Below, in pieces: positions 2,912 through 61,509 of a stretch of 64,000 bases of DNA. The notes below the pieces were generated by a model. The model had not been told where the DNA came from and did not search any database. It was given only the letters and a program-made list of their open reading frames with translations. The first letter of the stretch is position 1; every line of letters begins with the position of its first letter. The DNA lies in contig NZ_CP110848.1 of NCBI RefSeq assembly GCF_026240635.1, positions 870,501 through 934,500 on the forward strand, in the 5' to 3' direction. Both the position numbers and the translations under genes were made by a program. This stretch comes from Trichothermofontia sichuanensis B231 (GTDB taxonomy: Bacteria > Cyanobacteriota > Cyanobacteriia > B231).

Positions 2912-3094
2912 TACAGCCTTTACCTTAATCCTAAAGTACAGGTTTACCTGGGTAGGCTGGGCGCAGTCTACAGGTGTGGCCCTCACCCTAAATCCCTCTC
3001 CCAGAGCGGGAGAGGGATTTAGGGTGAGGGGGCTGTTTCAGCCTCAATTGCAATGACTATAACTGTGTACTGAGTAAATTAGGTAAAGACTATA
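2912..3094. repeat. Nested GC-rich hairpin repeat (C outside, B inside)
   Basis: The left end TACAGCCTTTACCTTAAT and right end AAATTAGGTAAAGACTATA are inverted repeats. Inside lie a segment aggtttacctgggtaggctgg (also near 56660), a hairpin around 2993-3020 (ccctctcccagagcgggagaggg) and the terminus GCAATGACTATA at 3050-3061 of the TATAGTCA family. It looks like one repeat inserted in or fused with another. Confidence 0.7.
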
Positions 3095-9403: not shown

Positions 9404-9510
9404 TATAGTCAATCCAAACAAGAACGATACAGTTTTTCACTCCCCTCTCCCGCTCTGGGAGAGGGGCTGGGGGTGAGGGTGCTGTTTCAGCCTAAATGAC
9501 AATGACTATA
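9404..9510. repeat. Full-length B repeat (TATAGTCA ends)
   Basis: A 107-bp element from TATAGTCAATCC to GACAATGACTATA; TATAGTCA/TGACTATA are terminal inverted repeats. The centre is a GC-rich hairpin (cccctctcccgctctgggagagggg). No coding capacity. Near-identical copies occur at 27565 and 36340. Its size, ends and lack of genes suggest a MITE-like element. Confidence 0.85.
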
Positions 9511-9782: not shown

Positions 9783-11057
9783 CTATAGCACCCCAAGCCT
9801 TCTTAGCGCATCTTCAGCTGCACGTCTTTCTGCTTCTTTTTTACTGCGATCTTCACCCCTGCCAAGCTCACGACCAGCCACAGAAACTATCGAGGTAAAT
9901 ACTGGAGCATTGTCTGTGCCACCAGTACGCTGGGTGTCATATTTAGGTAATTTATTATCGGGCTTAGCAGGATAATTTGGGCTGAGAACATATTGTTGAT
10001 AATTTGGACTCAGAACATATTCTTGTAATTGATTTTTCACATCTTTAGTCTGAGTACTTTGACGAGCAGTGTTCTCGGTGCTGGATATGGCATTACTCAC
10101 TGTTTCGAAAAACGGCTCAACCAGTTCACGCACTGCTTCGATTCCTGCATCTAAGTAATAAGCTCCGACAACTGCTTCAAAAGTATTACTCAGTAATGAT
10201 GATTTGGTACGTCCCCCACTAAGCTGCTCACCCCTGCCAAGTTGTATCCATTGGCCGAGTTGTAATTGTTCAGCGAATTGTGCGAGCCGAGCATTGTCAA
10301 CTAAGTTCTTACGGAGATTGGTCATTTCACCTTCCCGTAAGTCTGGATTCCTCTTATACAAGAAGTCAGCACTTAGGAATGTCAGTAAGGCATCTCCTAG
10401 AAATTCCAACTGTTCATTATCTTCCCCAGTATTGGGGTTTTCGTACTTGTAGGAGGTGTGGGTTAGGGCTTGCTTCAAAAGAGCTGCATTTCGGAATGGC
10501 AGACGTTCTAATAACTCTCTAAATTTTTCTCTGATGCAGGCTTCCTCAGCCGGAGAAACAGATGTGACTCTTATTTCCTGCCTTGGTTGCTCTTGTGCTA
10601 AAAGGCGAAGAATATCCTGTCGCTGTTTATCAACCTCATCAATTAGCTGTTGATCAACATCGACGACCTTCGATAGTGCTATGGACCTTAATAACCTCCA
10701 TATACTGTCTACTGACCGATAGGTATCATCCGTAGAAAAGTTAGCTTGGTGCGCCCAGTTGTTACGAACTTCCAGTAATTCGCTAATAAGTGCACGATCG
10801 GATTGACTGAGAGAATTCTTGAATATCTCCCATTCTCTAATTAGCGCTATTAACAATGCAGAAATATCTTCGAAAAGGATATCCTTACTTTTCTGTTTTT
10901 TCTGTTTCGCTTTGTGATGTTCTTTTAGGTGCGATAAAGCTTGTTTTTCCCAATTTTCTCCATAAATAGCTTTGAGCCGCTGTTCAACATAAGGATATAG
11001 AACCTTCCGCAGGGATTCCAGTGCTCTGCCAATCCTTTCTTGATTGCTAAATTCCAT
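9783..11057 (-). CDS. HEPN-RNase III-dsRBD fusion protein
   Basis: A 424-residue protein in three parts. Residues 1-130 match the Swt1-type HEPN domain (NQERIGRALESLRKVLYPYV; LISELLEVRNNWAHQ; FSTDDTYRSVDSI), with the RNase motif R-x4-H at R98/H103. Residues 172-325 are an RNase III domain: signature NEQLEFLGDALL with Glu218 and Asp222, then LSNTFEAVVGAYYLDAG, where Asn291 replaces the usual Asp but Glu294 is kept. Residues 338-422 are a dsRNA-binding domain ending GRGEDRSKKEAERRAAEDAL. Ordinary RNase III lacks the HEPN part. It may process or destroy structured RNA, perhaps in stress or defence (inference). The ATG at 11057 sits at the edge of a B repeat; a repeat-encoded extension of 33 residues (to 11156) is open in frame. 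Confidence 0.85.
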   Translation of the reverse strand: MEFSNQERIGRALESLRKVLYPYVEQRLKAIYGENWEKQALSHLKEHHKAKQKKQKSKDILFEDISALLIALIREWEIFKNSLSQSDRALISELLEVRNNWAHQANFSTDDTYRSVDSIWRLLRSIALSKVVDVDQQLIDEVDKQRQDILRLLAQEQPRQEIRVTSVSPAEEACIREKFRELLERLPFRNAALLKQALTHTSYKYENPNTGEDNEQLEFLGDALLTFLSADFLYKRNPDLREGEMTNLRKNLVDNARLAQFAEQLQLGQWIQLGRGEQLSGGRTKSSLLSNTFEAVVGAYYLDAGIEAVRELVEPFFETVSNAISSTENTARQSTQTKDVKNQLQEYVLSPNYQQYVLSPNYPAKPDNKLPKYDTQRTGGTDNAPVFTSIVSVAGRELGRGEDRSKKEAERRAAEDALRRLGVL

Positions 11058-11058
11058 A

Positions 11059-11140
11059 TATGGTCGATCCAAATAAGAGCGATACAGTTTCTCACTCCCC
11101 TCTCCCGCTCTGGGAGAGGGGCTGGGGGTGAGGGTGCTGC
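11059..11140. repeat. B repeat abutting the HEPN-RNase III start
   Basis: A TATGGTCGATCC end followed by the same hairpin body as the copy at 9404 (cactcccctctcccgctctg...). The right end, normally TTTCAGCC...TGACTATA, is missing after gggtgctg, so the copy is truncated. Its left end begins two bases upstream of the ATG at 11057. Confidence 0.8.
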
Positions 11141-13456: not shown

Positions 13457-13940
13457 ATCATGCCGCCGTCATCACCCTGGCACGCCCGAAGCAGATTGTT
13501 GCTACAGTTCTCCTACCCTAGCGCACTCCCGGCTGCGATCGTCACCAGCTTTCGACCTGCCCTATGTCCCTAGCGTCACCCTTCTAAAGACCTGTAGATG
13601 ATAACGATTCTGCGACCGGGTTGCCAGTCATCCTTCACCCACTGTCCCGGTTCCGAACTATAGTCATTGCAATTTAGGCCGAAACAGCCCCCTCACCCTA
13701 AGTCCCTCTCCCAGGGCGGCAGAGGGACCTAAAAATCTGGTTCCCCCTTTCCCAAACGGGGTGAAGGGGTGGGGAGATGAGGGCTACCGGTTCGGATCAA
13801 AATCCAAACCTTAACGGTGTACTGAGTCAATTCGGTAAAGGCTGTATCACCTGTAGGCGGGGTCAAACACCGTGCCGCTCAACAAACCATGCCACTGTGT
13901 TGGGCTGCGTAAACTTGAAACTAACCTACATCGTAACTGT
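13457..13940. other. 484-bp gap holding a C-type repeat
   Basis: Apart from the repeat at 13659-13846, the gap contains the divergent upstream region of slt and the 3' flank of the small protein gene at 13941. No additional gene is seen. Confidence 0.4.
13659..13846. repeat. C-type GC-rich intergenic repeat
   Basis: Left end TATAGTCATTGCAATTTAGG, right end TCGGTAAAGGCTGTA, about 188 bp. It contains two GC-rich hairpin regions (ccctctcccagggcggcagaggg; ccctttcccaaacggggtgaagggg). It shares its right half with copies at 4330 and 20657. Confidence 0.8.
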
Positions 13941-27564: not shown

Positions 27565-27671
27565 TATGGTCAATTCAAATAAGAACGATACAAATTTTTA
27601 CGCCTCTCTCCCGCTCTGGGAGAGAGGCTGGGGGTGAGGGCGCTGTTTCAGTCTAAATTGCAATGACTATA
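27565..27671. repeat. Full-length B repeat
   Basis: TATGGTCAATTC to GCAATGACTATA, 107 bp, same hairpin body as 9404. It lies between ureF and the convergent DUF2854 gene. Confidence 0.85.
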
Positions 27672-61201: not shown

Positions 61202-61509
61202 GGAGAAAGGCGAGAGAAAAAAGAGAACGGAGATAGTCGCTCCGTTTCCCTCACTGCTCACTGCTCTATCCTCACTCCTATCTCCCACAAGGGGCGAAAG
61301 GACTTGAACCGCAAAACTTGGCTTAAAAGCCTCTCTCCCGCTGTGGGAGAGGGATTTAGGGTGAGGGCCGCCCCAGCCTCTGCTCCCCAACGGGGTGAGG
61401 GTCGCCGCGGGGAGATGTTGCCATCTTAACTAACGTAAAACTGTACTTTATGATTGAGGGAGGTATGATTGAGGGAGGGGCTGTACCACCAAACTCCTGC
61501 TGCTAACTC
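61202..61509. other. 308-bp gap with repeat debris
   Basis: An E-type hairpin (ctctctcccgctgtgggaga near 61325), a segment similar to 27681-27727 (cactgctcactgctctatcctcactcc), and the exact 15-bp tandem duplication tatgattgagggagg at 61449 and 61464 just before moaD. Confidence 0.6.

What the first reader, a model, noticed from the sequence alone, without database searches (positions are those of the whole stretch)
9783..11057. HEPN domain fused to RNase III and a dsRNA-binding domain
The N-terminal 130 residues match the Swt1-type HEPN fold with the R-x4-H RNase motif intact (RNNWAH). HEPN RNases are typical of toxins and defence systems, while RNase III cuts dsRNA. Combining two RNases of different chemistry in one chain suggests dsRNA recognition coupled to general RNA cleavage, possibly an abortive or stress response. 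Its RNase III has Asn in place of the second catalytic Asp position.
Basis: partly seen in the sequence, partly recalled or inferred. Interest (0 to 1): 0.75.

Follow-up and report, generated by a model that had tools for sequence, protein, structure and literature searches.

The report
HEPN-headed RNase III of cyanobacteria
This cyanobacterial gene really does join two different RNA-cutting enzymes in one protein, but that combination was already described in 2013; what is added here is that the HEPN piece has been put onto RNase III genes at least twice, in two genomes at the spot where relatives keep their ordinary single-headed RNase III.

Summary
The minus-strand gene at 11057..9783 encodes 424 aa: a Swt1-like HEPN domain (residues 11-126, PF18731, 107.7 bits), an RNase III domain (191-314) and a dsRNA-binding domain (341-421). 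R98 and H103 of the R-x4-H motif are invariant in 20 of 20 fusion HEPN domains. The modelled HEPN fold best matches yeast Swt1.

The architecture is not new: Anantharaman et al. 2013 (PMC3710099) describe cyanobacterial HEPN-RNase III-dsRBD "two-headed RNases". The Asn at the second Asp position is ordinary; non-fused cyanobacterial relatives mostly have Ser there.

What I add: all fusions found are cyanobacterial. One origin for all fusion RNase III domains is rejected (AU p = 0.00025). In one genome the join lies exactly at codon 2 of the native RNase III; in another a whole fusion sits at that same native locus. In 6 of 15 surveyed fusion genomes, this one included, the fusion is the only RNase III of its clade. 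No defence neighbours and no plasmid or phage copies were found.

Most likely it is a working dsRNA-cutting RNase III carrying a probably active HEPN RNase. An abortive-defence role is possible but not favoured.

The parts
9783..11057 (-). HEPN_Swt1-RNase III-dsRBD protein, 424 aa
10680..11027 (-). Swt1-like HEPN domain, residues 11-126
   Evidence: PF18731 107.7 bits; fold match to yeast Swt1 4pqz
10749..10766 (-). R-x4-H motif RNNWAH, residues R98-H103
   Evidence: R and H invariant in 20/20 fusion HEPN domains
10116..10487 (-). RNase III nuclease domain, residues 191-314 (E215, E218, D222, E242, N291, E294)
   Evidence: PF14622 118.9 bits, TIGR02191 198.8 bits; catalytic columns
9795..10037 (-). 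dsRNA-binding domain, residues 341-421
   Evidence: PF00035 49.5 bits
9971..10030 (-). 27-bp tandem duplication (YVLSPNYQQ repeated) at the start of the dsRBD, seen only in this copy

Best explanation
It is a cyanobacterial clade-A RNase III with a Swt1-like HEPN RNase added at its N-terminus. Shown by sequence: three intact domains, conserved motifs, repeated assembly, and takeover of the native RNase III slot in some genomes. Inferred: it works as a homodimer through RNase III; the dsRBD and RNase III bind and cut double-stranded RNA (antisense pairs, structured precursors, foreign dsRNA); dimerisation brings two HEPN heads together into the composite HEPN site, which makes additional cuts in the bound or neighbouring single-stranded RNA. 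The protein thus keeps the ordinary RNase III duty, at least where no other clade-A enzyme exists, and adds a second cutting mode. Whether the HEPN head is always on or triggered by dsRNA is unknown.
For: Domains, motifs and fold. HEPN R and H invariant although the fusions share only about 36-64% identity with the window protein overall. RNase III catalytic acids other than the D114 position invariant. The fusion is the only clade-A RNase III in G000, G555, G387, G374, G326 and G262; such absence is commoner than in hand-counted non-fusion genomes of the class (6/15 against 10/104, Fisher p 0.006, not corrected for kinship). In G326 the DNA matches a relative's solo RNase III (90.7%) from codon 2 and through the downstream genes, with HEPN plus linker in front; in G374 a whole fusion lies at that same locus. 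All-fusion monophyly rejected, p 0.00025.
Against: No activity is shown for either head. In nine fusion genomes a solo clade-A enzyme coexists, so there the fusion need not be housekeeping. One copy (G129) lost the RNase III core but kept HEPN and dsRBD, and one (G514) is a pseudogene, so the gene is dispensable somewhere.
Confidence: 0.55

Rival explanations
1. A defence or stress effector: binding of viral or aberrant dsRNA by RNase III/dsRBD switches on the HEPN head, which degrades cellular RNA and stops growth.
For: Closest HEPN relatives sit on HmaC/DUF499 ATPases of an R-M-like defence system, where a suicide role is proposed (PMC12839542); patchy distribution with decayed copies.
Against: No defence genes beside it in the neighbours examined; no fusion on plasmids, phages or viral contigs; sits at the native RNase III locus or is the only clade-A enzyme in several genomes.
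Confidence: 0.25
2. The HEPN head is a non-cutting RNA-binding or dimer-stabilising part that only adjusts which RNAs RNase III processes.
For: HEPN domains without activity exist (eukaryotic Swt1, PMC3710099).
Against: R98 and H103 invariant in 20/20 fusions, together with W101, D64, E93, R114, D117 and R121; the eukaryotic Swt1 HEPN that is judged inactive has lost the motif.
Confidence: 0.15
3. The join is an annotation or assembly artefact, or a decaying chance fusion.
For: One pseudogene and one internally deleted copy.
Against: About 18 unbroken copies in several families, in finished and draft genomes alike, with both active-site motifs kept.
Confidence: 0.02

Closest known systems
HEPN-RNase III-dsRBD 'two-headed RNases' of Cyanobacteria (Anantharaman et al. 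2013, PMC3710099; e.g. gi:119489560, Lyngbya)
   Same: Same domains in the same order, same phylum, Swt1 HEPN family, HEPN listed as active; same proposal of dsRNA targets cut by both domains.
   Different: The 2013 text gives one example and no survey. Added here: two or more joinings, native-locus takeover, RNase III inventory, Asn/Ser at the D114 position. I could not align with their example itself.
Clade-A solo cyanobacterial RNase III (non-fused relatives of about 226-300 aa)
   Same: About 41-54% identical over RNase III and dsRBD; same catalytic residues; same locus in G326 and G374.
   Different: No HEPN head.
HEPN-DUF499 ATPase (HmaC of Hma; Type-1 BR system, PMC12839542)
   Same: HEPN with following linker about 37-51% identical to residues 1-173.
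   Different: HEPN joined to an AAA+ ATPase in an R-M-like defence system; no RNase III.
Yeast Swt1 C-terminal domain (4pqz)
   Same: Best fold match of the HEPN domain, Z 8.9.
   Different: 15% identity; eukaryotic Swt1 HEPN is judged inactive and is fused to PIN.

Membership tests
HEPN superfamily, Swt1-like family (PF18731) | Profile match above curated cut-off | tested here: met
   107.7 against 27.5 bits
HEPN superfamily, Swt1-like family (PF18731) | R-x4-H motif conserved at a helix end | tested here: met
   R98/H103 at the end of helix 85-103; invariant in 20/20 fusions
HEPN superfamily, Swt1-like family (PF18731) | Helical-bundle fold like solved HEPN/Swt1 | tested here: met
   4pqz Z 8.9, 2hsb Z 7.3 are the two best rows; caution: helical bundles reach such Z by chance, and Foldseek alone found nothing
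HEPN superfamily, Swt1-like family (PF18731) | RNase activity from a HEPN dimer | not testable with these tools
   needs protein
Bacterial RNase III (TIGR02191) | Equivalog profile above cut-off | tested here: met
   198.8 against 166.25 bits; Foldseek hits to RNase III structures
Bacterial RNase III (TIGR02191) | Metal-binding acids E41, D45, D114, E117 (E. coli numbering) | tested here: inconclusive
   three of four present; D114 is N291, but Ser or Asn is usual in related enzymes and D114A keeps weak activity
Two-headed HEPN-RNase III (Anantharaman 2013) | HEPN (Swt1 family) + RNase III + dsRBD in a cyanobacterium, HEPN motif intact | tested here: met
Hma / Type-1 BR defence system | DUF499 ATPase with methylase and helicase neighbours | tested here: not met
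   no DUF499 in the chain; neighbours scanned are a lytic transglycosylase, an amidase and a response regulator
Toxin-antitoxin system | Conserved adjacent antitoxin gene | tested here: not met
   no shared neighbour across the fusion loci of the window's clade

The most novel reading that the evidence does not exclude
Cyanobacteria repeatedly convert their ordinary RNase III into a dsRNA-triggered suicide or surveillance RNase by adding a HEPN head shared with a defence ATPase, so that a housekeeping enzyme doubles as an innate dsRNA sensor.
Probability: 0.12. Interest if true: 0.75.

Novelty: new member of a known kind. Interest (0 to 1): 0.4.

Why it matters
As far as I know, bacteria have no general dsRNA alarm like the animal RNase L pathway, in which dsRNA sensing leads to RNA cutting by a HEPN-family (KEN) domain. 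A protein that couples dsRNA binding and a HEPN RNase in one chain, joined more than once and replacing the normal RNase III in some cyanobacteria, is a simple place to test for one. If the HEPN head only assists RNA processing, it is still a case of a defence-type RNase recruited to ordinary RNA metabolism.

Tried and rejected
Asn as a sign of a dead or odd RNase III: rejected, Ser/Asn are usual in relatives. Phage, plasmid or viral carriage: only stand-alone RNase III or HEPN proteins without RNase III found. Defence-library match of the protein itself: only PDC-M34B at E 0.029. Conserved partner gene: none in the window's clade; Nostocaceae-type copies sit by a glutaredoxin-like gene and a Mur ligase, family f9 copies between RlmN-like and Uma2 genes. 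Solved relative by sequence for HEPN: none. Foldseek with HEPN alone: no significant hit. Single origin of all fusions: rejected; single origin without G326b: not rejected, p 0.16. De novo HEPN capture from HmaC for G326b: less likely than recombination with an existing fusion, because the AEEARIKEKL stretch before the junction is fusion-type.

Full report
What is there. The minus-strand ORF 11057..9783 encodes 424 aa. Pfam finds Swt1-like HEPN (residues 11-126, 107.7 bits), RNase III (191-314, 118.9 bits) and dsRBD (341-421, 49.5 bits), all above their cut-offs; NCBIfam calls the C-terminal part RNase III, 198.8 against 166.25 bits. The window lies in a 4.44-Mb single-contig genome that is the only member of its order in the genome collection; its relatives are Cyanobacteria.

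HEPN check. R98-x4-H103 is intact. Across 20 fusion HEPN domains R98, W101 and H103 never vary, and neither do D64, E93, R114, D117 and R121. The HEPN model (pLDDT 91) places the motif at the end of helix 85-103 and aligns best with the yeast Swt1 C-terminal domain (4pqz, Z 8.9, 129 residues), then with a HEPN protein (2hsb, Z 7.3). Helical bundles can reach such Z by chance and Foldseek alone found nothing, so the Pfam score carries the claim and the fold agrees with it.

RNase III check. Residues equivalent to E. coli E38, E41, D45, E65 and E117 are present (E215, E218, D222, E242, E294); D114 is N291. In the relatives compared, most solo cyanobacterial enzymes have Ser there, some Asp, and several acidobacterial ones Asn; E. 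coli D114A retains weak activity in excess Mg (PMC8708148). I therefore expect an active RNase III, perhaps with an altered metal requirement (inference).

It is known. Anantharaman et al. 2013 list RNase III plus dsRBD fusions in Cyanobacteria within the Swt1-like HEPN family, 'active', and call them two-headed RNases likely to cut dsRNA with both domains (PMC3710099). I found no experimental follow-up in the open-access library.

Distribution. A survey of 390 cyanobacterial-class genomes gave 16 with strong matches; with a phylum survey and a GTDB contig scan there are about 20 distinct fusions, all cyanobacterial. About 18 are unbroken; G129 has an in-frame loss of the RNase III core and G514 is a pseudogene; G387 is split by a contig break; G512 keeps only a truncated RNase III. 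Of 15 surveyed genomes with an unbroken fusion, taken from the class and phylum surveys together, six (G000 = this genome, G555, G387, G374, G326, G262) have no solo clade-A RNase III; all have a separate clade-B RNase III (my assignment to clades by match pattern, tree). Among about 104 hand-counted non-fusion class genomes, after setting aside families that lack clade A, ten lack it; Fisher p 0.006, kinship not corrected. The clade-B copy of G568 is partial, and several of these are draft genomes.

Origins. In the RNase III tree the second fusion of G326 (L081) nests with well-supported branches inside the solo enzymes of its own family, next to G074. Forcing all fusions into one clade is rejected (AU p 0.00025); leaving that one out, a single clade is not rejected (p 0.16). 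DNA comparison shows L081 matching the solo locus of G074 at 90.7% from exactly codon 2 of the native RNase III, followed by the same transporter genes; the preceding 160 codons are HEPN plus linker. A whole fusion in G374 occupies the same locus. The linker before the L081 junction resembles other fusions rather than HmaC, so recombination between an existing fusion and the native gene is the likelier route (inference). 'At least twice' therefore means at least two joinings of a HEPN head to distinct RNase III sequences, not necessarily two captures from HmaC.

Where the HEPN comes from. The same HEPN with its linker (residues 1-173) is about 40-51% identical to the N-terminus of 1030-1180-aa DUF499 ATPases (37-49% over the HEPN), which PADLOC names HmaC (1098.5 bits) and a 2026 survey calls Type-1 BR, proposing a suicide role for the HEPN (PMC12839542). 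The HEPN tree does not resolve which is ancestral.

Context. The window copy lies between a lytic transglycosylase gene and an amidase gene; no neighbour is shared across its closest relatives. Neighbours scanned elsewhere are housekeeping or generic. No plasmid, phage or viral-contig copy was found.

Reading. I favour an RNase III that keeps its dsRNA-cutting duty and has a probably active HEPN RNase added; because both RNase III and HEPN RNases work as dimers (general knowledge), one homodimer could hold two RNase III sites and one HEPN site. A dsRNA-triggered abortive effector is not excluded. Neither activity has been measured.

Noticed in passing
L070:7246-10632 (-) (own genome G000:C1 about 2477245-2480631): HmaC-like HEPN-DUF499 ATPase whose HEPN motif reads RNDWAR (His lost), with Uma2-like and other genes around it and no obvious methylase or helicase: an orphan with a probably dead HEPN.
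   Followed up: partly
L072:7240-7713 (+); L188:855-2087 (-); L189:639-1640 (-): RNase III-like proteins in cyanobacteria that lack most catalytic acids; the own-genome one (157 aa) lies just after an S-adenosylmethionine-synthetase-like gene.
   Followed up: partly
window 2994-3016, 9443-9465, 11098-11120, 13704-13726, 27604-27626, 61331-61353 and others: Palindromic repeat CCCTCTCCC-N5-GGGAGAGGG, 10 copies in the window with up to 3 mismatches (expected 0.06), one on each side of the fusion gene.
   Followed up: partly
window 9971-10030: 27-bp tandem duplication in frame at the start of the dsRBD, not seen in relatives.
   Followed up: no
L047:1165-2163 (-) (G129): Fusion with an in-frame loss of about 76 residues of the RNase III core (including the E117 equivalent) but HEPN motif and dsRBD kept.
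   Followed up: partly
L081, L161, L176, L178-L180: Conserved locus in one cyanobacterial family: RNase III followed by a nitrate/bicarbonate-type ABC transporter set and, in most, a CitMHS transporter.
   Followed up: partly
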